This document shows, in pieces, positions 19,030 through 39,240 of a stretch of 42,886 nt of DNA (position 1 is the stretch's first letter; every line of letters starts with the position of its first letter). This DNA comes from a bacterium. Its GTDB lineage: Bacteria > CSSED10-310 > JAJRTK01. Made by a program: the position numbers and the translations under genes. The stretch is from NCBI GenBank assembly GCA_024278345.1, contig JAJRTK010000503.1, forward strand, positions 1 to 42,886, read 5' to 3'. The notes under the pieces were generated by a model. It saw only the letters and a list, made by a program, of their open reading frames with translations. It made no database searches and was not told the origin of the DNA.

Positions 19030-20901
19030 ATGCTTGAACTGCACATGGCCGAACTTGGGCCCCAAAACGAACAGGTCTATGCGAACTTTGAGCTCAATTT
19101 GGCTGAAACCCGGACCCGGAAGACTCTCCTGGTGTCCCGTCCGATTCATATCCAAATCGAAACGACGACCCGGTGCAACTTGGGGTGTATACAGTGCGGA
19201 CTTCACTCCTACGCCCTAAAAAATCGGGACTTGGACGTTGAGGTTTTGCTGGACCTTGCCAAGAAGCTTTTTCCAACAGCGGGCTCGGTGGTTTTTTCCG
19301 ATACAGGAGAAGCTCTGATGTACAGTTGGCTCGACACTGTATTCGAGCTCGTTCGCCAATATAAGATCCCCGTTGCCGGCTTCTTCACCAATGGGACTCT
19401 GCTCGATGATAAAGCTGTGGCCGCGATTCTGGCTTCAGGGATGGCGTTCGTCAATGTTTCCATCGACGGCGCGACTCCAGAAACTTACGAGAGAATTCGC
19501 CTCGGCGCCCGATTTTCCGAGGTGATGGGCAACCTTCGGCGGCTCACCGATCAACGGCGGAAAAAGGGATCGAGGTTCCCCATTGTTCAAGTCAATTTCG
19601 TCGGGATGCGAGAGAATATCGAGGAGTTTCCGCGCCTGGTGGAGATGGTCGCTGATGCTGGAGCGGAACGGGTGGTTTGCTCCAATTTGGTTCCCTATAC
19701 CTACGAGCTGCAGGAGCGGTCTTTGGTTCATCAATCGGAAGTGACGGCGCGGGTGCGGCGCAGGGCACTTGAGATCGGTGAGGCGCTGGATGTCTATGTA
19801 GGTTTTCCGGAACCAGGTCTCCCGGCGATGAAGCGATCGAGTCATGGTACCAAACCCCAGATTTTCGACCCAGGTGCGAGGCTGTCACCGTCACACGCAG
19901 TGGCTTCTCTTGAGGTGAACGAAGTACCTGATCATGCGATCAGGGCCGAGTTTTTGCAGCTCCACGTGCTCGTCAAGAATCTTTCTCAGACCTTGTTTCG
20001 CGGGACAGGAGACCCAGTCTTGGGGCGGGTTGCTCTGAGTTACCACTGGGAGGATGAGCAAGGTGAGACCGTGGTTTTCGATGGGCTTCGGTCCGAGTTG
20101 GGTGGAGACCTGGAAGCGGGTGAATCGAAACGGGTTCTTTGCACTGTGAGGACCCCGGAAAAAGCAGGCAACTACAGGCTCGTACTCGATTTGGTTCGAG
20201 AGGGCGTGCGCTGGTTTGGAGACCTTTGCCAGCGACCGGTTAGCCAAATGGAGATTGCCGAGGCGTTCGCTCTCAATTATTTTCCCCCTCCATTGGGGCG
20301 GTGCGAGTATCCGTGGAAATATTTTACCGTCAAAGTGAGCGGTGACATCTATCCCTGCTGCTGGTTGTCGAAGAGCTTGGGTAACGTAAGGGAACAAAGC
20401 ATCGAGGAAATCTGGAATGGCGAGCGTTTTCAGCGATTGAGGGCGAGCATCTGTGACGGGAGTTATTCCGTTTGCCGCGGAGCACATTGCCCCTATTCGA
20501 GCTTGACCCCCCCCGATGCTTTTCGGATGGAGTTCGAGCCCCAGGAGGTGTTGGACAAAATGCTCTTGGGGAGGGAATCCCGGCTGGAGGTTCGCGTCTG
20601 GAATCGGTCTCCCTTCGTGTATCGAGCCTTCGGAGATGACTTTGACGGAGCCGTGCGCCTTGCCTACCATTGGCGGAGCCAGAAAGGCAAAACCCTGGTT
20701 TTCGACGGCCTGCGTACGCCCTTGCCGCACGACCTCGAACCCGGAGGCGCTGCGACGGTAAGCATGAGAATCGCTCCGCCTGCCAGAGCAGGGAAACATA
20801 GGCTCCTATTGGATGCTGTCATTGAGGGGGCCACTTGGTTTAGCCAAGCGGGCATGAAACCCGTGGAGCTTGAGGTAGACGTTCGTTGCTCAACCGCCTG
20901 A
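19030..20901 (+). CDS. Radical SAM/SPASM protein with two Ig-like domains
   Basis: 623 residues, ATG 19030 with GGGGAA upstream. The radical SAM barrel occupies about 35-260, with a canonical CX3CX2C cluster motif (C49, C53, C56 in TRCNLGCIQCG), FSDTGEAL, FFTNGTLL and VSIDGATPE. An Ig-like beta domain (about 295-405) is placed between barrel and SPASM. The SPASM part follows (about 418-490: CEYPW, VSGDIYPCCW, SIEEIWNGE, and late CRGAHC). A second Ig-like domain ends the protein (about 505-620). The two Ig domains are alike: both have SYHW or AYHW, VFDGLR, and a closing LVLDLVREGVRWF or LLLDAVIEGATWF. Such proteins modify peptides or other substrates with SAM-derived radicals. No precursor peptide is certain, though a repeated sequence lies immediately downstream. 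Confidence 0.87.
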   Translation: MLELHMAELGPQNEQVYANFELNLAETRTRKTLLVSRPIHIQIETTTRCNLGCIQCGLHSYALKNRDLDVEVLLDLAKKLFPTAGSVVFSDTGEALMYSWLDTVFELVRQYKIPVAGFFTNGTLLDDKAVAAILASGMAFVNVSIDGATPETYERIRLGARFSEVMGNLRRLTDQRRKKGSRFPIVQVNFVGMRENIEEFPRLVEMVADAGAERVVCSNLVPYTYELQERSLVHQSEVTARVRRRALEIGEALDVYVGFPEPGLPAMKRSSHGTKPQIFDPGARLSPSHAVASLEVNEVPDHAIRAEFLQLHVLVKNLSQTLFRGTGDPVLGRVALSYHWEDEQGETVVFDGLRSELGGDLEAGESKRVLCTVRTPEKAGNYRLVLDLVREGVRWFGDLCQRPVSQMEIAEAFALNYFPPPLGRCEYPWKYFTVKVSGDIYPCCWLSKSLGNVREQSIEEIWNGERFQRLRASICDGSYSVCRGAHCPYSSLTPPDAFRMEFEPQEVLDKMLLGRESRLEVRVWNRSPFVYRAFGDDFDGAVRLAYHWRSQKGKTLVFDGLRTPLPHDLEPGGAATVSMRIAPPARAGKHRLLLDAVIEGATWFSQAGMKPVELEVDVRCSTA

Positions 20902-21087
20902 TGCTCATCCCGGATATCTTCTCACGGACTCCCCCGGTACCTGAGCCGTTGTCTCCACCCGCATCCTCGTCGGGCGGAGCCGTGACGTTCAACGGCCTGA
21001 TGCTCATCCCGGATATCTTCTCACGGACTCCCCCGGCGCCTGAGCCGTTGTCTCCACCCGCATCCTCGTCGGGCGGAGCCGTGACGT
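20890..21087. repeat. 99-bp tandem direct repeat, two copies
   Basis: Copy 1 is 20890-20988 and copy 2 is 20989-21087. They differ at three positions only (20895/20994 and the pair at 20938-20939/21037-21038). The period is a multiple of three, and the sequence is open in the frame starting with ATG 20901-20903 on plus (a peptide with LIPDIFSRTPP and SPPASSSGGAVT, repeated every 33 residues). It is also open on minus. The first copy overlaps the last codons of the radical SAM gene. Confidence 0.9.
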
Positions 21088-27600: not shown

Positions 27601-27868
27601 CGAACTCTTCAAAGATGCGAAGCAGGTCTTTTCGCTCGTAACGGATATCTCCGTCGTAGGCCAGGGACTGGGCCATCGTGTAGTAAACGGCCTCGTCCCC
27701 GTGGAAATAGCGGGCCACCTGATGGTAGTCCACGGAAAGTGCCAGCGAGATGAGAGGCGCTGCAAAAAGGATCAAGAGAAGCCAGGTGTTCGACCTGTTT
27801 GGCCTTGAAGTTGTCCATTGGCCGGCCAGTGGCTTTAGGGCTGGGCTCTGCTTAGCCAAGGAGGGCAT
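24590..27868 (-). CDS. GT-C-like membrane glycosyltransferase with basic loops, TPR and a C-terminal beta region
   Basis: 1092 residues. ATG 27868 has AGGAG seven bases upstream, inside the end of dop, and the two genes overlap by 17 bp, so translation is probably coupled. The N-terminus has the GT-C signature: membrane segment about 28-46, then HGDEAVYYTMAQSL, whose acidic residues fit the catalytic site of GT39/GT83-type polyprenol-dependent transferases. Further membrane segments follow up to about residue 600. Two long hydrophilic basic inserts (about 201-303 and 386-460) interrupt the membrane part. The C-terminal part has TPR-like helices (RRALRLLAQL, GDLGGAIAAAEKTLAKG) and ends in a beta-rich region. 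The donor and acceptor are unknown. Why it is coupled to a proteasome gene is unexplained. Confidence 0.78.
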   Translation of the reverse strand: MPSLAKQSPALKPLAGQWTTSRPNRSNTWLLLILFAAPLISLALSVDYHQVARYFHGDEAVYYTMAQSLAYDGDIRYERKDLLRIFEEFDQGPQGIVLKGRILDDGQEAVYYAKPFLYSAFIAPFVRLFGTNGALLWGVLSLLGSVALTAIWFRRRGFRWPLLTAGALFGASAAYLYALWMQPELTNMALVLTAYFIWRGAPQKQETAAEPFSLSSSSRVARSRSHPSTHCRQTRPKAAENGPTGQHPVGDRESPSTKAIPDSGGLARGCPGGHGLSVDELDSHPKERPRSGRNTRPRGGSAWRCSVACLILGMATFAKVPTIVMAGPIFGTLLLRRRFGALLLSGFCFFASLVGLFALNQWATGEWNYQSGNRSIFYFSRGFPYQNKEKDSFFRQKKPARPNREAAENVGQHSPGPGGRGTPGKIADTGKKARKKTNKEALASRKSTDGSVGGAKTRGSQWNLKEALAQYKFQWSMFWPNLSSFWIGRYSGILVYFPLFLLLVFPALTQKPQLEDLLIWLCVIVAMLAFLERGQSNYFGGSGTVGNRYFSMILPALIFTMRPPGRNFHRFALLGATALAGQLILYPFMSLFNSGAHAARQPFHSLPLELSLTNSISIPNRNFLKVPFDNGRVLAYLPDAGTWGGEEGFFWTRGDGTADVVLRIPFQRLDDLLITLEAGEAGVEVELEAAGMEERLRLNAGESRELPIHFSSHYLHSSIYGATSYLYPLRIKTHGSFVPAARTQVRDTRFLGAKIRFTADPSKLARAWLEHSQPRRALRLLAQLKSPRIDWTRIEALEAAGDLGGAIAAAEKTLAKGVPALEKLAWASALALRAGRLHLASSWAGWLADRDRQAWWPVLIQARAALQTGSWNLALRYAREAVRRAPGSLVARVECAVIAGKTPVDALSSARLAGLRAAPAVNLGGFLTLEGIRVRSDGGGLKGVLLGQVTSLPGKRNLAFFAHLMEMGSPGKSPLSVWAADLLRSLRSRRISVHVDLASDAEPPLPLWAPGDRVALEFRLEFPKQGMPEPSHAWLGLGIVDARSGERIPSLSANLWILRNRIILPTAIESRAEDREALPKPWKKRNSEDLSN

Positions 27869-29366
27869 CCAAGAGCTCCTGAGCCGTGCTGGCGTTGCGC
27901 AGCAGCTCTCCCACTAGCTCCTCGGTCCCCTTGAACGGGTCGGAAAGGAAGACCATCTTGTTCTTCTGGGTGCCGGAGAAGATGAGGTGATCCCAACTGA
28001 TACCGCAGATACTGGAAGCGAATTTCTCCAGGCACTTGCCTCGGAAGTAGGCTCGCGTGTCGGCTGGCGGGTTTTCCACGAAATAGCGGACGAGCTGATC
28101 GTCTGGAAGAACGCGATGAATATGTCCCGCGGCAACCAGGAGATTGTAGAGGCCTTTCTTGGGTCGAATGTCGTGGTATTGGATGTCCATTCTTCGGATG
28201 AGTGGGTGGTCCCAGGGGATGGATTTCGAGCGCATCTTGCGCCGGAGCAGCCAACGTTTCGTCACCCAGTCCACTCTGTCCACGAGCTCATCGGGGTCAT
28301 TTTCCAGCTTGGTCAGGACCTCTTCCCACTGAAAAAGGATGTCGTCGGCAAGGGGATCGCGGTGGCGCGTGGGATCGGAAAGATATTTTTGAGCGAGCTC
28401 CAAGAAGATCCTTTGGATTTCGATGGCGGTGTACCGTTTGCCGTTTTCCAGGGTAAGGCGATAGGTGAGGCCCGGATCGTGAGAGACACCCTTGATATCC
28501 CGAACGGGGTTGTTCAAAGCCAGATCCCGACCGATGAAATGGTCTTCCATCATCCGAAGAACGATCTGGGTTGTACCCACCTTGAGGTAGGTACAATACT
28601 CACTCATGTTCGCATCGCCCACAATGACGTGGAGGCGCCGGAAGCGGCTGCGATCGGCGTGAGGTTCGTCGCGAGTATTGATGATGGGCCGGTTGCACAT
28701 GGTCTTGCCATCGATGAGCGTCTCGAAGAAGTCGGCCCGCTGACTTACCTGGTAATCGACCTTCGGCGCCCCGTTTTCCGAGCCGACTTTACCCGCGCCA
28801 GTAAAGATCTGCCGAGTCACGAAGAAGGGGATGAGGTGGGAAATGACCTCGGGTTCTTTCCCGCCTTGCTGCCTGAAAATCCGCTCGTACGCCGTGGCGT
28901 CCATCAGGTAGTTTTCGTGACAACCGTAGCTGTTGCCCTTTTGATCCGAGTTGTTCTTGTAAATCTGGATGCTCTGTCCCGACTCGAGCTTGCGATTCGC
29001 CTCCTGCCGACTCATGTCAAGAATGATGCGCCCAGCGCTGTCGGCGGCCACCAGGTCCAGCGCGGAGCGGCATTCGGGAGTTGAGTATTCCGGATGCGCA
29101 TGATCGACGTAGAACCTGGCCCCATTCTTCAGCACATTGTTGATGGCGCGGTTGTCTTCCTGCGTGACCACCATGCTGGTGCCATTCCGCTTGAATCCAC
29201 GGGCGTCCTTGAGGGGGTCTTCCACGTCGTAGTCCCAAGAGATACGCGAGATGGAACGATAGGAATTCACCACCAGGAACGATGCCCAGATGGGGTTGAA
29301 TTCTTTCTGGCCGTCTACGGTGATGGCATATTCTTGTTCGATTCCCACAAGCTTTGGGATGCTCAT
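27852..29366 (-). CDS. dop: Dop: Pup deamidase/depupylase
   Basis: 504 residues from ATG 29366, close to the ~500 of mycobacterial Dop; an open extension to 29471 is not conserved-like. The carboxylate-amine ligase fold starts with VGIEQEYAI. Segments diagnostic of Dop rather than PafA are WDYDVEDPLKDARGF, NGARFYVDHAHPEY (D88 would be the catalytic aspartate), YKNNSDQKGNSYGCHENYL, IINTRDEPHAD and RRLHVIVGDANMSEY. The loop after WDYDVEDP is present but short. By family knowledge Dop deamidates the Pup C-terminal glutamine and removes Pup from substrates. It follows the proteasomal ATPase gene by about 400 bp and is coupled to the membrane transferase downstream. Pup, 20S subunits and PafA are not in the window. 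Confidence 0.92.
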   Translation of the reverse strand: MSIPKLVGIEQEYAITVDGQKEFNPIWASFLVVNSYRSISRISWDYDVEDPLKDARGFKRNGTSMVVTQEDNRAINNVLKNGARFYVDHAHPEYSTPECRSALDLVAADSAGRIILDMSRQEANRKLESGQSIQIYKNNSDQKGNSYGCHENYLMDATAYERIFRQQGGKEPEVISHLIPFFVTRQIFTGAGKVGSENGAPKVDYQVSQRADFFETLIDGKTMCNRPIINTRDEPHADRSRFRRLHVIVGDANMSEYCTYLKVGTTQIVLRMMEDHFIGRDLALNNPVRDIKGVSHDPGLTYRLTLENGKRYTAIEIQRIFLELAQKYLSDPTRHRDPLADDILFQWEEVLTKLENDPDELVDRVDWVTKRWLLRRKMRSKSIPWDHPLIRRMDIQYHDIRPKKGLYNLLVAAGHIHRVLPDDQLVRYFVENPPADTRAYFRGKCLEKFASSICGISWDHLIFSGTQKNKMVFLSDPFKGTEELVGELLRNASTAQELLDALLG

Positions 29367-29454
29367 TCTACCCGTTTCCTCGATGGGGGTTGGGAGCGCC
29401 GTTTGGCCGCCCTTCTTTTCGAAAACCTCTTTTTGCGTTGAGTTCCGCTCGCAT

Positions 29455-29474
29455 CGCGTGCAGGCCTGCACGCG
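29455..29474. repeat. 20-nt perfect palindrome upstream of dop
   Basis: CGCGTGCAGG followed directly by its reverse complement CCTGCACGCG. It is 89 bp before the dop start. It could be an operator or a cruciform-forming site. Confidence 0.7.
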
Positions 29475-29774: not shown

Positions 29775-32195
29775 TTATAGATACCGGCTCGACACGGCCA
29801 GTGCCTCCGTTTCCTTGGTGTCTTCCCCTTCCAGCTTGGAGGGCATGAGTGTTTTTATAGCCACGATCTTTTCGCCCTTTCGACCGCTGATCCGGGACCA
29901 GTCGTCGGGGTTTGTCGTGTTGGGCAGGTCCTCGTTCTCTTTGTACTCGCCTCGGATCGCCTTGAGTAGGTCGTTGGAGCGGAGCCCGCGGTCGCCAGTA
30001 AGGATCGTGCGTTTGAGAGCGATCTTCTTCGCTCTGGAAACGATGCCATCGATCATGGCGCCGGAGGCGAAATCCTTGAAGTAGAGGGTTTCTTCGTCGC
30101 CGTTCTTGTAGGTGACCCGCAAGAATTCGTTCTCTTTCTTCGTGTCGTACATTTCCTCGACGGCCGTGACGATCATCTGCTGGATGAGGGTTTCCTTGTC
30201 GCCGGCTTCTTCCACTTCCTCCTGGTCAAGGGGGATGTCGGGTGTGAGGTAGATGGCGAAGATCTTTTTCGCGGCTAGTTTTTCCGGACGATCGATCTTG
30301 ATCTTGATGTCGAGTCGCCCGGGACGGAGGACCGCTGGGTCGATGAGGTCTTGCCGATTGGAGGCGCCAATGACAATCACGTTCTCGAGTTTCTCGACGC
30401 CATCAATTTCAGCCAGGAATTGGGGCACGACAGTCGATTCCATGTCTGAGCTGATGCCGGACCCGCGCGTGCGGAAGAGCGACTCCATTTCGTCGAAAAA
30501 GACGATGACCGGGAGCCCGTATTCGGCTTTTTCACGGGCTTTGATGAACACTTCCCGAATCTTGTGCTCGGTTTCGCCCACATACTTGTTCAGCAGCTCT
30601 GGCCCTTTGATATTCAGGAAATAGCTCTCGGACTCCGCTTCCATCCGTTCTCGGGTTCGCTTGAGCTCGGCGTCGAGGTTGTCGATCTCCACATTGTGGT
30701 TCCGAAGCGTGTTCTCCAGCCAATGGAGCATGTAGTCGCGGTCGGAGACGGCTCGTCGCTTCATCAAGTATTTCTTGCGTTTGCGCTCCAGCATGTTCCC
30801 GATTTTCTCGTCCTCTAGGGCGCCGTAACCCATTTTGTTGAGATCGAGTAGGAGATCCAGCCACTCCTGATGAGTGTAATGTCCTTCAGTGCGGCGCAAG
30901 AAGTCGCCAAGCAACCCCGTCTTGTCCAGGCGTTGTCGGAGCTCCTCGGCATTGTGCGCGGTTCTCCGGGCGTAGAGGTCTTGGATTCGGTAAATCCTGG
31001 ACTTGAGGATCTCAAATCTGTCGAGAAGGGTGCTGATGGGATGATCGGGGTCGGAGAGCTCCTTGTAGAGGAGGATCGCTTCCAGCGTGTCCTCGAGGCT
31101 TCGTTTCACCCGTTGGGCCAGATTGTAGGCCACGGCTTTCGCCACCAGAGTTTTCCCACACCCAGGGGGCCCGTAGAGCAAGATCCCCTTGGGCGGCTTG
31201 AGCTTGAAGTCCTTGTAGAGATGGGCATAGACATAAGGCAGCTCGATGCTATCCTTGATCTGCTCGATCTGTTCGTCCAACCCGCCGATTTCTCCGTAGG
31301 CGATACAGGGGAGCTCTTCGAGAACCACGTCTTCGATTTCGCTCTTGGGCATGCGTTCATAGACGATGTTACTGCGGTCGTCGAACCGGAGGTTCTCGCC
31401 GATCTTGAGTTTCTTGCCCTTGAGGGCGCCGGCGATCCGGGCGACCCGATCCTCGTTCTCCCGGCTCTTCACAATGACGCGGCCTTCATCCAGGACGTCG
31501 ATGACTTTGACGATTTGTCCCGTGTCGATAGTTTGCCTTGTTTCCAGCACGTTATACGCGCCGTTGAGGAGCAGGCGTTGCCCCGGTTCGAGATCGTCGA
31601 GGCGGATCTCTTCGTTGGCGACATTCACCTCGTATTCCCGGCCCTCCACGCTCACTACAGCGAGTTCGCCATCTTCGCTCCGCGAAACGAAAACCCCGTA
31701 GGGAAAGGGAGGCGCCTTGAGCTTTTGCACCTCTTCCCGAAGCTTCTGGATTTCCACCTTCGTCATCCGAAGCGTTTCCACGAGCTTCTGATTGGTAGCT
31801 TCCGCGGCTTTGGCATGGCGAAGTGCTTTGGCCCGATCTTTCTCGGCCGACTGGACCGCCTCCTGCCACGCCCGGAACTCCCGTTTGAGTTCTCGCACCT
31901 TTTCCGACAGATAGGCAATTTCGTCACTCTGGTGACGCAGTGTTCTCGCCGCGCGGCGCAAGTGGGTAGAAAACACGCGGAGCTTCTTGACGGCCTTGGT
32001 TTTTCCTTCGAGCGTTTCCAATGCTTCCGCAGCTTCGGAAAACAAGAGCTCGACCGCATCGACCAGGTTCTCGCCAGGGGCGCCACTCCGCTCCTGGAAC
32101 CGCGCTTCGATTTTCGTAAAGAGTCTGGTGAGCGTGGCGAGGTTCTCTTCGGCATAAACACGGAACAGTTCTCGCGCGTCCCGCTGGTTGCTCAT
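29775..32195 (-). CDS. mpa: Proteasomal AAA ATPase (Mpa/ARC type) with a large insert
   Basis: 806 residues, against about 600 for Mpa. ATG 32195 has AGGGG and AAGGA upstream. N-terminal helices (1-90) and a coiled coil (about 92-162) should bind Pup; two OB-like subdomains follow (about 165-290). The AAA domain has Walker A GPPGCGKT (342-349), Walker B VIVFFDEME (563-571), sensor ASN (611-613) and RPGR (624-627). Between Walker A and the segment SYFLNIKGPELLNKYVG lies an extra helical stretch (about 363-521) that Mpa lacks. The C-terminus ends RYL, close to the GQYL tail by which Mpa docks on the 20S core. The segment DLPNTTNPDDW near the end is typical of ARC/Mpa. The role is to unfold pupylated proteins for the proteasome. 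dop follows. Confidence 0.93.
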   Translation of the reverse strand: MSNQRDARELFRVYAEENLATLTRLFTKIEARFQERSGAPGENLVDAVELLFSEAAEALETLEGKTKAVKKLRVFSTHLRRAARTLRHQSDEIAYLSEKVRELKREFRAWQEAVQSAEKDRAKALRHAKAAEATNQKLVETLRMTKVEIQKLREEVQKLKAPPFPYGVFVSRSEDGELAVVSVEGREYEVNVANEEIRLDDLEPGQRLLLNGAYNVLETRQTIDTGQIVKVIDVLDEGRVIVKSRENEDRVARIAGALKGKKLKIGENLRFDDRSNIVYERMPKSEIEDVVLEELPCIAYGEIGGLDEQIEQIKDSIELPYVYAHLYKDFKLKPPKGILLYGPPGCGKTLVAKAVAYNLAQRVKRSLEDTLEAILLYKELSDPDHPISTLLDRFEILKSRIYRIQDLYARRTAHNAEELRQRLDKTGLLGDFLRRTEGHYTHQEWLDLLLDLNKMGYGALEDEKIGNMLERKRKKYLMKRRAVSDRDYMLHWLENTLRNHNVEIDNLDAELKRTRERMEAESESYFLNIKGPELLNKYVGETEHKIREVFIKAREKAEYGLPVIVFFDEMESLFRTRGSGISSDMESTVVPQFLAEIDGVEKLENVIVIGASNRQDLIDPAVLRPGRLDIKIKIDRPEKLAAKKIFAIYLTPDIPLDQEEVEEAGDKETLIQQMIVTAVEEMYDTKKENEFLRVTYKNGDEETLYFKDFASGAMIDGIVSRAKKIALKRTILTGDRGLRSNDLLKAIRGEYKENEDLPNTTNPDDWSRISGRKGEKIVAIKTLMPSKLEGEDTKETEALAVSSRYL

Positions 32196-32665
32196 TCCTT
32201 ACCCCTGAAAGATGTGTTGACTGTTGTGGTGAGGCCTTCGTGTGTCGCATAGGAGAGCACTTTTGCTTCGCGGCGGAAGTTCTCGGCCTGGGTGCCTGGT
32301 GGAACATCCTGCCCCCACCCCATCCAAGGCTAGTTCCGGCATGGATAATTGTCAAGGTTTCCCATGAGATCGAGGTTGGTTCGGCGCCGACGTGATATAA
32401 TCGAAATAGGCACGCAACTTTTCTTGCTTTTTGCCGATAAGAACCGTGATGAAACTCCGCGGTTTCCAGTACAGCGGACATGGGATAAGAGACAAGAAAG
32501 GCAGCGTTCGCGGGATTGAGGCAGATTCGGGGTCCTGAAAAGAAACTCCTTGCCTTCTTCCCTTTGGGTTTGCCGGGAATCCCGGTCTAGTGTTTGGAAA
32601 AAAAGCGGATACAGTGCAAAATCGAGCAAATAGGTTCGAGAGGCTTAAGAAAGGAGTCAGATAAC
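32196..32665. other. Divergent spacer between mpa and the glycine-rich protein gene
   Basis: 470 bp that must carry promoters for both strands. It has a perfect TATAAT on plus (32396-32401) and a dyad CCGGGA-A-TCCCGG (32573-32585) 80 bp before the start at 32666. A 29-codon frame at 32449-32538 has no features that would support it. I find no Pup-like frame. Confidence 0.6.
32376..32401 (+). promoter_or_regulatory. Possible promoter with perfect TATAAT
   Basis: TATAAT at 32396-32401; the best -35 candidate, TTGGTT at 32376-32381, gives a short 14-bp spacer, while GGTTGG at 32374 gives 16. It would leave a leader of about 260 nt before the gene at 32666. Confidence 0.35.
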
Positions 32666-33625
32666 ATGGGATTCATTCGCAGTGTGGGCCGTTTTTTCCG
32701 GCGGGCCATCAGCACCGTGGGCAAGGTTCTCAAACCCATCGCAAAGATAGCGCTTCCAGCGATTGGCACGTTGATTGGCGGACCCGTTGGTGGAGCCATC
32801 GGCGGCGCTCTCGGTGGCTTGCTCACCGGTAAACCCTCGTTCAAGAACATCATTGGTGGTGCCCTTAGTGGGATTACCGGTGGCTTGGGTGGCGGTTTGC
32901 TCAAAGGCGTGGGTGGAAGTCTCCTCAAGGGCGTTGTCGGTAAGGCTTTTGGTAGTGGCGGTATCGGCAGTATGCTGGGGGGTCTCTTCAAGGGCGGCGG
33001 CGGAATCGGCGGCCTGATCAGCAAAGGCCTCGGTCTTCTTGGCGGCGGCAAAGGTGGCGGGATCGGCCAGCTCTTTGGCAAGCTCCTAGGCGGCAAAGGC
33101 CCCATAGGCGGACTGCTCAAAAGTGTCATGGGCGGCGGCGGCCCCATGGGTATTATCAAGAATCTTATCGGTGGTAAGGGGGGCGGCCTGCTCAAGAGCA
33201 TCATGGGAGGACTTGGCAAAGGTCTACCCGGTGGCCTTCTCAACATTGCCAAGAATGTCTTTGGCGGCGGCATCCCGAAAATGCTGGGCCCCAGTGGCCT
33301 CCTGGGCAAGCTCATGCCCATGCTTGGCGGTGGCAAGGGTATCGCTGGTATGCTCAAGAGCATCGTCTCTGGAGGGAATCCTCTTGGCCAGATCATGAAA
33401 ACCATGATGGGTGGCACGGGCAATCTTGGCAAAATGTTTGGTCAATCGGCCATGCGGAACCCGCTCATGAACAACTTCATGCAGGCGTTCCAGGGATCCA
33501 ACAGTGCCGGATCCAATGCATTCGGCGCTGGAATGCAAGCTTTTTCCGGTATGCAGGGCGTCATGCAGGCGCACGCGGCGCTCATGCAATCGGTGGTATC
33601 GGCCTCCCGAATGCCTACCTGGTAA
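32666..33625 (+). CDS. Glycine-rich cationic repetitive protein with no acidic residues
   Basis: 319 residues from ATG 32666, with AAGGAG upstream (an open extension to 32594 is not used). I count 94 glycines (about 29%), 25 lysines and 6 arginines, and no aspartate, glutamate, cysteine or tyrosine. The N-terminal ~50 residues form an amphipathic basic helix (GFIRSVGRFFRRA) then a glycine-zipper stretch (GGPVGGAIGGALGGLL). The middle has loosely repeated units such as GGLLKSVMGG, GGLLKSIMGG and GGLFKGGGG. The C-terminal 70 residues are different: methionine-, asparagine- and glutamine-rich, ending in RMPTW. No family is recognised. Membrane insertion, pore formation or self-assembly is inferred from composition. 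It has its own terminator; an acidic TPR gene follows. Confidence 0.85.
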   Translation: MGFIRSVGRFFRRAISTVGKVLKPIAKIALPAIGTLIGGPVGGAIGGALGGLLTGKPSFKNIIGGALSGITGGLGGGLLKGVGGSLLKGVVGKAFGSGGIGSMLGGLFKGGGGIGGLISKGLGLLGGGKGGGIGQLFGKLLGGKGPIGGLLKSVMGGGGPMGIIKNLIGGKGGGLLKSIMGGLGKGLPGGLLNIAKNVFGGGIPKMLGPSGLLGKLMPMLGGGKGIAGMLKSIVSGGNPLGQIMKTMMGGTGNLGKMFGQSAMRNPLMNNFMQAFQGSNSAGSNAFGAGMQAFSGMQGVMQAHAALMQSVVSASRMPTW

Positions 33626-33644: not shown

Positions 33645-33694
33645 GAGAGGAGCGAGCTCCGCACACCGCGGACTTGCTCCTCGTCTCTTTTTTT
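33645..33694 (+). terminator. Strong rho-independent terminator after the glycine-rich gene
   Basis: A long stem built from GAGA/TCTC, GGAGCGAG/CTTGCTCC and TCCGC/GCGGA arms with loop ACACC, then seven T (33688-33694). It begins 20 bp after the stop and separates this gene from the next at 33771. Confidence 0.85.
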
Positions 33695-33770: not shown

Positions 33771-34571
33771 ATGGCAGAGACTCAGCCGGAGCCGAGCCAG
33801 GAACAGGCCGATCTCATCACTCCCGAAGAGATCGAGAACATGAGCCCCGAAGACCAGAAAAAACTGGCTTATAACATCGAACAGACCGCAGTCATGCTTA
33901 GCGAGCTGACGGAAGAGGAAGTGGAGAAACTCCAGGCCATGCCTTGGGAGAAACTCGACGGCCCCGCCGAGCCTGATGCGCCGCTCACCGATGAAGACAA
34001 GGCTGCCTACCGGGAGATGTGGGACCTTGTCCAGGACGGAACGACGACCATGGCGGAAGTCCTTGGCTACGACGAGGACGAGATCATGAAGACCTACAGC
34101 GTCGGAGCCGCCCTTTCCGATCAGGGACGTTATGATGATGCTCTGAAAATTGCTGAAGGCCTCCTTTTTCTCATGCCGAAGCTGGTCCCGGGCCACCTGC
34201 TCAAGGGTGAAGTTTTGCGAAAACAGGGCCGCCTGGAAGAGGCACTAGAGGCCTATAATGCGGCGGTTTCCGCCGATCCGACCTACATTCAGTCCTATTT
34301 CGAGCGGGCGAAGCTCTTCTTCCGTGCGGAAAGTGGCCAGTACTTCCTGATGGACATCCAGACCATCGCGAATCTGGATCCTGAAGCAAAAACGCCCTTT
34401 GGCAAGGCAGCGCAGAAGATCTTGGAAGCCACGGCGGAAGAACTCAAGAAAGATGGGCTCTCAGACGAAGAGCTGGAAGCTATTGGAGACGCACTAGACG
34501 ACGCGATGCTCGATATCGACGAAGATACCATTCCCGAGATCGACGAGGATGGCAACCAGATCATCAAGTAG
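33771..34571 (+). CDS. Very acidic TPR protein resembling type III secretion class II chaperones (SycD/LcrH)
   Basis: 266 residues, ATG 33771 with AGGAGG upstream. I count 63 acidic against about 24 basic residues. The centre (about 98-215) has three TPR-like units: GAALSDQGRYDDALKIAE, LKGEVLRKQGRLEEALEA and YFERAKLFFRAESGQY. Before it, AEVLGYDEDEIMKTYSVG matches the entry to the TPRs in SycD/LcrH-type chaperones. The last ~50 residues are an acidic tail (DALDDAMLDIDEDTIPEIDEDG). There is no signal peptide or membrane segment, so it is cytosolic. The neighbour upstream is the cationic glycine-rich protein, an obvious candidate client by charge. No type III apparatus gene is in the window, so the chaperone reading is an inference. 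The next gene overlaps the stop by one base. Confidence 0.78.
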   Translation: MAETQPEPSQEQADLITPEEIENMSPEDQKKLAYNIEQTAVMLSELTEEEVEKLQAMPWEKLDGPAEPDAPLTDEDKAAYREMWDLVQDGTTTMAEVLGYDEDEIMKTYSVGAALSDQGRYDDALKIAEGLLFLMPKLVPGHLLKGEVLRKQGRLEEALEAYNAAVSADPTYIQSYFERAKLFFRAESGQYFLMDIQTIANLDPEAKTPFGKAAQKILEATAEELKKDGLSDEELEAIGDALDDAMLDIDEDTIPEIDEDGNQIIK

Positions 34572-35386
34572 TGCCACGACAATCCAACGATGCAAAAACT
34601 GATGGTCATCGCTTGGCCTTCGCGGCCAAGCGATGCCTCGATGCCTTTCTTCTGCTGACCTCCACCTCTTCGGAAGAAAATAGCAGTCTCAGGGCCTTGG
34701 TCTTCCACATGCTTGAAGGTCACGCCCCAGGTTTCTTCAGGCGATGCTCGCTTGCCACTCTCCTGAATTCCGCGATGAAGGGGCTGCAGCCGTTATCCAT
34801 CGAACTCCCGGAAAACCTGCCCGCCGACGACGGAATGGCTCGCATTGACGCCTGGTATTTACGAAGGCTAAGAGGATACCCTCATCCCGATCCCGACCCG
34901 GCCTGCCTGGAGCGATATTTGCGTTCCCTTGAGGCGCGGGGAGAACCTCTTCATGGCTGGATCATCCAATGGATGTGCCAGGATGTTGGCGTCCGCACGG
35001 CCAATTTCAACCGGGAATGGGAACACCGCGGGGGCTCCCTCATCCATGACCTCTATTGGGTGACGCACCTGGTCTTGCTGGAAACCCGGTATTTGTCTCG
35101 GCCCCTGAAGCCTGGGACATTGCCCAGGCTAGAGGAGGAGCTCTTCCGGGCTTGCCATTATGCACGGGCCCGGAGGCACATCGATGTGGCGGCGGAACTG
35201 GCCATCTGTCTACAGGTGGTGGGCCGACGGAATCACCGGTGGCACACAATCTTGATCGACGAGCTTCTGGAGCACCAGAAGCACGATGGCTCGGTCATGG
35301 ACAATAGCTTGGAGGCCCGTGGGCTCCGGGCACACTGCACCGGGGCATCGCTGGTAGCTTTCGCGGGTGGTGCGAGGGAGCCCTGA
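34571..35386 (+). CDS. Unknown helical protein coupled to the acidic TPR gene
   Basis: 271 residues from GTG 34571; its G overlaps the TAG stop of the TPR gene (TAGTG), so translation is probably coupled. There is no signal peptide or membrane segment. The C-terminal half has paired helices with HDLYWVTHLVLLETRYLSRPL, ARRHIDVAAELAICLQVVG and ILIDELLEHQKHDGSVMDN. This resembles an alpha/alpha-toroid of the kind found in terpene-cyclase-like or DUF6895-type proteins; the match is to outline only. Histidine is frequent (HDLYW, THLV, CHYA, RRH), perhaps for metal binding. It ends 10 bp before the convergent membrane synthase gene. Function unknown. Confidence 0.72.
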   Translation: MPRQSNDAKTDGHRLAFAAKRCLDAFLLLTSTSSEENSSLRALVFHMLEGHAPGFFRRCSLATLLNSAMKGLQPLSIELPENLPADDGMARIDAWYLRRLRGYPHPDPDPACLERYLRSLEARGEPLHGWIIQWMCQDVGVRTANFNREWEHRGGSLIHDLYWVTHLVLLETRYLSRPLKPGTLPRLEEELFRACHYARARRHIDVAAELAICLQVVGRRNHRWHTILIDELLEHQKHDGSVMDNSLEARGLRAHCTGASLVAFAGGAREP

Positions 35387-39086: not shown

Positions 39087-39240
39087 GGGACCTATCAGAT
39101 CCGGTTGACAAGTCCACGCACGAAAGGAACCCACCGTTCAATTCCGTGAATCCCGGCCAGACCGCCACCGGCAAGATGCCGGTGCCACCAGGGCGGCGCC
39201 GCGGAGTGTAAAGCAAAAACGCGGGGATTTGATAGGTCCC
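39087..39240. repeat. MITE-like element with 16-bp terminal inverted repeats
   Basis: The left end GGGACCTATCAGATCC (39087-39102) is the reverse complement of the right end GGATTTGATAGGTCCC (39225-39240) with one mismatch. The interior (122 bp) has no gene but contains an eight-bp hairpin at 39166-39184 (CACCGGCA, AGA, TGCCGGTG) of the REP-like type dispersed in many planctomycete- and verrucomicrobia-like genomes. It lies between the YchF-like and CpaF-like genes. Confidence 0.55.

What the first reader, a model, noticed from the sequence alone, without database searches (positions are those of the whole stretch)
32666..33625. A 319-residue protein with 29% glycine and no aspartate or glutamate
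Seen directly: no acidic residue in 319, 31 basic residues, no Cys or Tyr, a single Trp as the last residue, a basic amphipathic start, then glycine-zipper and GGLLK-type units, then an M/N/Q-rich end. A cytosolic protein of this length without any acid is very rare. Composition recalls membrane-active or self-assembling polypeptides. A strong ribosome site and a strong private terminator show that it is a real, probably abundant product.
Basis: partly seen in the sequence, partly recalled or inferred. Interest (0 to 1): 0.88.

Follow-up and report, generated by a model that had tools for sequence, protein, structure and literature searches.

The report
Acid-free glycine-rich candidate type-III-secretion export
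An uncultured bacterium carries a gene for an unusual protein with 29% glycine and no acidic residue; it shares a promoter element and gene layout with that bacterium's type III secretion ("injection needle") genes and sits beside a probable secretion chaperone, so it is most likely an exported, membrane-active part of that machine.

Summary
In detail: 32666-33625 encodes 319 aa with 94 Gly, no Asp or Glu, 31 Lys/Arg and pI 12. No homologue was found in 386 genomes, viral contigs, genome contigs, PDB, Pfam, NCBIfam or PHROGs. Its meaning comes from its surroundings. The next gene (33771-34571) encodes an acidic TPR protein (pI 4.1). By profile it groups with TPR chaperones next to T3SS genes in this phylum (CSSED10-310), and its predicted fold matches SycD best (Z 16.3; PcrH, AcrH and IpgC close behind). 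The genome holds a non-flagellar T3SS (SctV, J, N, R, S, T, U and a FliA-like sigma factor). At least three other loci repeat the layout: basic partner gene, hairpin terminator, acidic TPR gene. One partner has DUF1521, the domain of T3SS-secreted NopE. An exact GCAAC-N14-GCCGATAA element lies 233 bp upstream of the gene. Genome-wide, 7 of 13 hits of a slightly looser form lie in front of T3SS-linked genes, this one included. Best reading: a T3SS-regulon, chaperone-paired exported protein, probably membrane-active (translocator-like). Export and membrane activity are inferred. Homology to known translocators, or to the phylum's needle-like proteins, was tested and not found. The neighbouring pupylation genes look incidental.

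The parts
32414..32440 (+). Promoter-like element GCAAC-N14-GCCGATAA; the second half equals the classical FliA (sigma-28) -10 consensus
   Evidence: Exact match. Same element and spacing in front of other T3SS-linked genes of this genome
32650..32656 (+). Ribosome-binding site AAAGGAG, 9 nt before the ATG
   Evidence: Sequence
32666..33625 (+). 319-aa glycine-rich, acid-free, basic protein (P0001); candidate T3SS-exported, membrane-active substrate
   Evidence: no homologue found
33647..33694 (+). Intrinsic terminator (hairpin 33647-33682 plus T run) between P0001 and the TPR gene
   Evidence: similar hairpins between partner and chaperone genes in C251, C479, C504 and in G003
33771..34571 (+). 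266-aa acidic TPR protein, SycD/LcrH-like (class II) T3SS chaperone; candidate cognate chaperone of P0001
   Evidence: TIGR02552 E 4e-9, below the curated cut-off; leave-one-out profile 75.9 bits; AF2 pLDDT 83; SycD Z 16.3
34571..35386 (+). 271-aa protein (DUF6895-like) overlapping the TPR stop codon by one base; possibly co-expressed, role unknown

Best explanation
P0001 is a substrate of the bacterium's non-flagellar type III secretion system. It is transcribed from a FliA/sigma-28-type promoter shared with other T3SS genes, made abundantly from its own terminated transcript, and held in the cytosol by the acidic SycD-like TPR chaperone encoded just downstream, whose charge is opposite to its own. 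It is then exported unfolded through the needle. Outside, its basic amphipathic N terminus and glycine-rich hydrophobic helices probably insert into or coat a target membrane (translocator or pore role). Shown by computation: the composition, the T3SS genes, the chaperone's family and predicted fold, the shared promoter element, and the repeated partner-terminator-chaperone layout. Inferred: chaperone binding, export, and membrane action. The T3SS-substrate step is rated about 0.65-0.7; the membrane-inserting role given export about 0.5.
For: Genome G000 encodes SctV (TIGR01399, above cut-off), SctJ, SctR, SctS, SctT, SctU and a FliA/WhiG sigma factor, and SctN and SctI-like proteins. It has one FHIPEP, one YscJ/FliF and one FliP hit, all of the T3SS type, hence no flagellum in this 88%-complete assembly. 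The adjacent TPR protein scores 75.9 bits against a profile built only from the other nine T3SS-linked TPR chaperones; the best single domain of generic TPR proteins in this genome is at most about 53. VIA ranks 1-10 for its model are SycD, PcrH, AcrH and IpgC chaperones. Partner - terminator - acidic TPR recurs at C251, C479, C504 and in G003. The C504 partner carries DUF1521 (8.5e-9, above cut-off), as in T3SS-secreted NopE and VIC_001052 (PMC6506597). The looser element GCAMC-N16-CGATAA has 13 hits in 6.06 Mb (2 for the reversed control); 7 lie in front of T3SS-linked genes: P0001, C93, C251 twice, C479, C489, C504. One-mismatch hits include a gene (C78) whose product is similar to the protein encoded after sctV in G003 (2e-21). 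P0001 pI 12.0 faces chaperone pI 4.1; the other partners in this genome also have pI 10.1-12. P0001 is the only hydrophobic member (GRAVY +0.46, others negative).
Against: P0001 has no sequence relation to any known translocator. The profile of the C-terminal needle-like motif of the phylum's other TPR-linked proteins gives P0001 no better score than shuffles (-3.2 bits, 1919 of 3000 shuffles equal or better). The class II chaperone-binding hexapeptide has only a loose match (PKMLGP at 204; 14% of shuffles have one). The TPR protein is below the curated LcrH_SycD cut-off (36 against 104.8 bits), and other TPR domains score Z 14 to its model. The gene is not inside a T3SS structural cluster. 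The promoter element was first spotted upstream of P0001 itself. No confident transmembrane segment.
Confidence: 0.65

Rival explanations
1. P0001 is exported by the T3SS but is a structural filament, needle-extension or tip protein rather than a membrane-active translocator.
For: Most other TPR-linked partner proteins in this phylum share a C-terminal helix of the needle/filament type; its profile's only PDB match is an EscF-like needle helix bound to its chaperones, at non-significant E 0.21. P0001's C terminus is M/Q-rich with an H...M..V pattern (2% of shuffles), and MAFFT puts its only His in the family's invariant His column.
Against: The profile finds nothing in P0001. The alignment needs an 11-residue insert. 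Its hydrophobicity and glycine content are unlike those proteins.
Confidence: 0.15
2. P0001 is an injected effector (basic, membrane- or nucleic-acid-binding) rather than part of the apparatus.
For: At least two other TPR-paired partners in this genome look like effectors (DUF1521 protein in C504, very basic protein in C479), under the same promoter element and layout.
Against: No enzymatic or eukaryotic-like domain. TPR-type chaperones classically serve translocators (PMC3443056), though here they also pair with effector-like genes.
Confidence: 0.15
3. P0001 is a glycine-zipper contact-dependent bacteriocin (CdzC/D-like) or another toxin unrelated to the T3SS.
For: Glycine-zipper-like and basic, as in the cell-surface killers of Caulobacter (PMC5380434).
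Against: No type I export genes or immunity gene in the flanking genes. It is beside a T3SS-type chaperone and behind a T3SS-type promoter element.
Confidence: 0.06
4. P0001 belongs to the pupylation/proteasome locus on its left (Mpa 29775-32195, Dop/PafA 27852-29471) as a substrate or regulator.
For: Divergent neighbour, 470 bp between the start codons.
Against: Mpa is absent from the seven other genomes held for the phylum. P0001 ends in MPTW, not the GGQ/GGE of Pup. Promoter, chaperone and layout all point the other way.
Confidence: 0.03

Closest known systems
T3SS hydrophobic translocators with class II chaperones (YopB/YopD-SycD, PopB/PopD-PcrH, IpaB-IpgC, AopB-AcrH)
   Same: Hydrophobic partner gene next to a SycD-like TPR chaperone gene in a T3SS-bearing genome; chaperone model best matches SycD, PcrH, AcrH and IpgC
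   Different: No sequence relation; 29% Gly and no acidic residue; no confident transmembrane helix; chaperone-binding motif only loosely matched; not in the T3SS cluster
Needle/filament proteins with TPR chaperones (SctF-SctG, EscF-EscG; Bsp22-like)
   Same: Chaperone of TPR type; several partner proteins of this phylum carry a needle-like C-terminal helix
   Different: P0001 fails that profile and is four times longer than a needle subunit
NopE / VIC_001052 DUF1521 (MIIA) T3SS-secreted proteins
   Same: A DUF1521 protein occupies P0001's position in the sibling locus C504, with the same promoter element, terminator and TPR gene
   Different: P0001 has no DUF1521 domain
Caulobacter CdzC/CdzD glycine-zipper bacteriocins
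   Same: Glycine-zipper-like, basic, probably surface-active
   Different: Those are small and type-I-secreted; none of those genes flank P0001

Membership tests
SycD/LcrH class II T3SS chaperone (TPR protein 33771-34571) | Three-TPR SycD fold | tested here: met
   AF2 model pLDDT 83 (residues 100-220 above 90); 2vgx SycD Z 16.3, rmsd 2.2 over 132 residues; ranks 1-10 are all T3SS chaperones. Other TPR proteins reach Z 14.5
SycD/LcrH class II T3SS chaperone (TPR protein 33771-34571) | Score above the curated TIGR02552 cut-off | tested here: not met
   36.3 bits against 104.8; it is the best-scoring NCBIfam model. The phylum mates beside T3SS genes also fall below (41-62 bits)
SycD/LcrH class II T3SS chaperone (TPR protein 33771-34571) | Groups with chaperones located in T3SS loci | tested here: met
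   Leave-one-out profile 75.9 bits against at most about 53 for single domains of generic TPR proteins of the genome
T3SS hydrophobic translocator (P0001) | Recognisable translocator sequence family | tested here: not met
   No Pfam, NCBIfam or PDB match
T3SS hydrophobic translocator (P0001) | Chaperone-binding hexapeptide (PELIKP type, PMC3443056) | tested here: inconclusive
   PKMLGP at 204-209; 14% of shuffles have such a match
T3SS hydrophobic translocator (P0001) | Membrane-spanning hydrophobic segments | tested here: inconclusive
   GRAVY +0.46 but no KD19 window above 1.6; helical in a low-confidence model
T3SS hydrophobic translocator (P0001) | Secreted through the T3SS and needed for translocation | not testable with these tools
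   Needs experiment
Needle/filament-type T3SS proteins of phylum CSSED10-310 | C-terminal helix [YF]..xSNxxKxxHxxxMxxIRNxK | tested here: not met
   Profile score -3.2 bits, 1919 of 3000 shuffles equal or better; partial His alignment only
T3SS regulon of this genome | GCAAC-N14-GCCGATAA element upstream, sense strand | tested here: met
   Exact at 32414-32440
CdzC/D-type bacteriocin | Adjacent type I secretion and immunity genes | tested here: not met
   Flanking genes are Mpa, Dop, TPR, DUF6895-like and a spermine-synthase-like membrane protein
Pup / UBact | C-terminal GGQ/GGE | tested here: not met
   Ends ...SASRMPTW

The most novel reading that the evidence does not exclude
A new type of T3SS export, a polypeptide of glycine-rich amphipathic segments entirely lacking acidic residues, which coats or perforates target membranes in place of the usual hydrophobic translocators, as part of a T3SS regulon run by a dedicated sigma-28-family factor in an uncultured, apparently flagellum-free bacterium. 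The absence of acids would be a working feature: one charge sign lets an acidic TPR chaperone mask the whole chain until export.
Probability: 0.3. Interest if true: 0.8.

Novelty: new variant of a known kind. Interest (0 to 1): 0.62.

Why it matters
If right, it gives a function to a composition that similarity searches cannot place, and shows how to find such proteins: by chaperone type, gene layout and promoter. It also points to an injection system in the candidate phylum CSSED10-310; a search of one text library for type III systems in uncultured phyla found nothing on it, and the short genome announcement for this phylum does not mention secretion. Here the export regulon can be read from sequence: GCAAC-N14-GCCGATAA with a FliA-like sigma factor encoded in the T3SS locus. 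What such free-living bacteria inject, and into whom, is an open question that this regulon makes testable.

Tried and rejected
Homologues of P0001: none in 41 and then 386 genomes (other hits E 0.0026-0.008, short, in unrelated frames, taken as chance), none in genome contigs, viral contigs, PDB, Pfam, NCBIfam or PHROGs. Membership in the needle-like C-terminal family: tested twice by profile, rejected. Acid-poor glycine-rich proteins near SctV in other phyla: only a planctomycete protein with 18% Gly (L038) is of similar kind. Shared promoter in phylum mates: one-mismatch hits stay near background there and none falls on their T3SS contigs found here, so the element is specific to this genome. 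One exact element hit (C434) overlaps the end of a kinase gene and the start of a proline-rich ORF; treated as chance. C70, C78 and C396 carry ACAAC variants, each with a large basic protein just downstream; suggestive, kept out of the count of 7. The single-sequence model of P0001 was too poor to search with. A link to pupylation was considered and dropped. The 281-aa proline-rich ORF on the opposite strand is the reverse reading of glycine codons.

Full report
What was checked. The ORF at 32666-33625 reads exactly as described: 319 aa, 94 Gly, no Asp or Glu, 25 Lys and 6 Arg, no Cys or Tyr, one Trp at the end. The ATG has AAAGGAG 9 nt upstream and the gene ends in a strong terminator (hairpin 33647-33682 plus T7, -29.8 kcal/mol, z -5.25). 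Its acid-free run is 320 codons, against 110 for the next best among ORFs of 150 aa or more in the sequence held at that point. GC3 is even along the gene.

No homologue. P0001 finds only itself in its own genome and in 386 genomes, and nothing in genome contigs, viral contigs, PDB, Pfam, NCBIfam or PHROGs. By sequence it is an orphan; the remaining evidence is context.

Host. The window is a whole contig of a draft genome (6.06 Mb, 550 contigs, 88% complete) with seven other genomes held for its phylum. Two phylum mates were recognised by their contigs: G006 is 'candidate division CSSED10-310' from Zodletone Spring, and G003 is filed as 'Schekmanbacteria'. The phylum is therefore taken to be CSSED10-310 (PMC8248873).

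The neighbour is a T3SS-type chaperone. The next gene (33771-34571, pI 4.1) has the SycD/LcrH chaperone model as its best NCBIfam match (4e-9, below the curated cut-off). Relatives lie in T3SS loci of the phylum: between a substrate-like gene and sctV in G006, and directly before sctV in G003. A profile made only from nine such relatives scores the window protein at 75.9 bits, well above single domains of generic TPR proteins of the genome. Its AF2 model (pLDDT 83) matches SycD best (Z 16.3), then AcrH, PcrH and IpgC; ranks 1-10 are all T3SS chaperones. Other TPR proteins reach Z 14.5, so the fold alone is not proof. The relatives also served as the alignment for the model, so the two tests are not fully independent.

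The genome has a non-flagellar T3SS. SctV is above the curated cut-off for the T3SS type. Contig C251 carries SctJ, SctN and SctI-like genes, further T3SS-like genes and a FliA/WhiG sigma factor. C489 carries SctR, S, T, U, a FliM-like protein with FHA similarity, and a 74-aa needle-like protein. Each of the three export or ring families searched has one hit in this genome, of the T3SS type, so a flagellum is unlikely.

Sibling pairs. Acidic SycD-like TPR genes occur at C251, C93, C504, C479 and in the window. At C251, C504, C479 and the window the order is partner gene, hairpin terminator, TPR gene; the same order holds for a DUF1521 protein in G003. At C93 the TPR gene comes first. The partners in this genome are basic (pI 10.4-12). 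The C504 partner has DUF1521, the domain of T3SS-secreted NopE and VIC_001052 (PMC6506597). Several partners share a C-terminal helix...SNxxKxxHxxxMxxIRNxK, also on the needle-sized proteins. The only PDB match of that profile is an EscF-like needle helix in its chaperone complex, at a non-significant E of 0.21. P0001 does not carry this helix by profile.

Shared promoter element. Upstream of P0001, at 32414-32440, stands GCAAC-N14-GCCGATAA; the right half equals the FliA -10 consensus (own knowledge). Exact GCCGATAA occurs six times in 250 kb (both strands) of the loci examined; five lie upstream of T3SS-linked genes in sense. Genome-wide, GCAMC-N16-CGATAA has 13 hits (reversed control 2), of which seven precede P0001, the C93 TPR gene, C251_A, C251_B, the C479 partner, the C489 operon and the C504 partner. 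From that density, a chance hit in the 470 bp before P0001 on the sense strand has a probability of about 5e-4 (own arithmetic). The element was first noticed upstream of P0001 and then tested on the others. A one-mismatch variant precedes a protein (C78) similar to the one encoded after sctV in G003 (2e-21, compositionally biased). The element is not seen on the T3SS contigs of the phylum mates.

Mechanism proposed. The FliA-like factor switches on P0001 with the other T3SS genes. The terminator makes P0001 more abundant than its chaperone. The acidic TPR chaperone masks the all-positive chain and keeps it export-competent. The chain passes the needle, and outside, its amphipathic start and glycine-rich helices associate with a membrane. 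The first steps rest on sequence evidence; binding, export and membrane action are inferences. P0001 is the only hydrophobic partner found (GRAVY +0.46, others negative), so it is the best candidate for the translocator function that an injectisome needs. But it has no translocator homology, no confident transmembrane helix and only a chance-level hexapeptide match.

Verdict. A real and unusual protein with a well-supported T3SS context and an unproven role: a new variant of a known kind (chaperone-paired T3SS export), not a member of a known substrate family.

Noticed in passing
window 29775-32195 (-): Mpa/ARC proteasomal ATPase (805 aa) whose AAA domain is split by an insertion of about 160 residues after the Walker A region (around residues 360-518). 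No other genome held for the phylum has Mpa, and no pup gene was evident in the gap before dop.
   Followed up: partly
G000 C251, L025:7866-8645 (-): A FliA/WhiG-type sigma factor encoded beside SctI and SctJ in a genome without detected flagellar genes; probably a T3SS-dedicated sigma factor. A similar sigma gene lies beside sctJ in G003 (L028:9980-10678).
   Followed up: partly
L193:1853-3898 (-), L192:1597-3489 (-), L191:656-4000 (+): Three large basic proteins just behind ACAAC-N14-GCCGATAA variants; one has about 12 tandem KTDSIAV repeats and an HEVNH metalloprotease-like motif. Candidate further members of the T3SS regulon.
   Followed up: partly
L143:3553-5706 (+), L144:2858-4504 (+): Two proteins with signal-peptide-like N termini carry the needle-type C-terminal motif (HxxxMAII.NM) near their ends; odd for proteins that look Sec-exported.
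   Followed up: no
L142:489-1844 (+): SctQ-like (FliM-related) protein with an apparent FHA domain directly before sctR; FHA domains are usual on SctD, not SctQ.
   Followed up: no
window 20890-21087: Two tandem 99-nt copies, 97% identical, around the end of a radical-SAM-like gene.
   Followed up: no
window about 39100-39216; L010 and L015 as well: Intergenic repeats whose frames read ...GGTGILPV.../...PASCRC..., recurring on several contigs of this genome and bounding the short sctV contig, which may explain the fragmented assembly.
   Followed up: no
L096:2286-3338 (-) / L148:3637-4974 (-): Very basic protein (26% Lys/Arg) with an internal duplication, paired with an acidic TPR protein; a possible nucleic-acid-binding T3SS effector.
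   Followed up: partly
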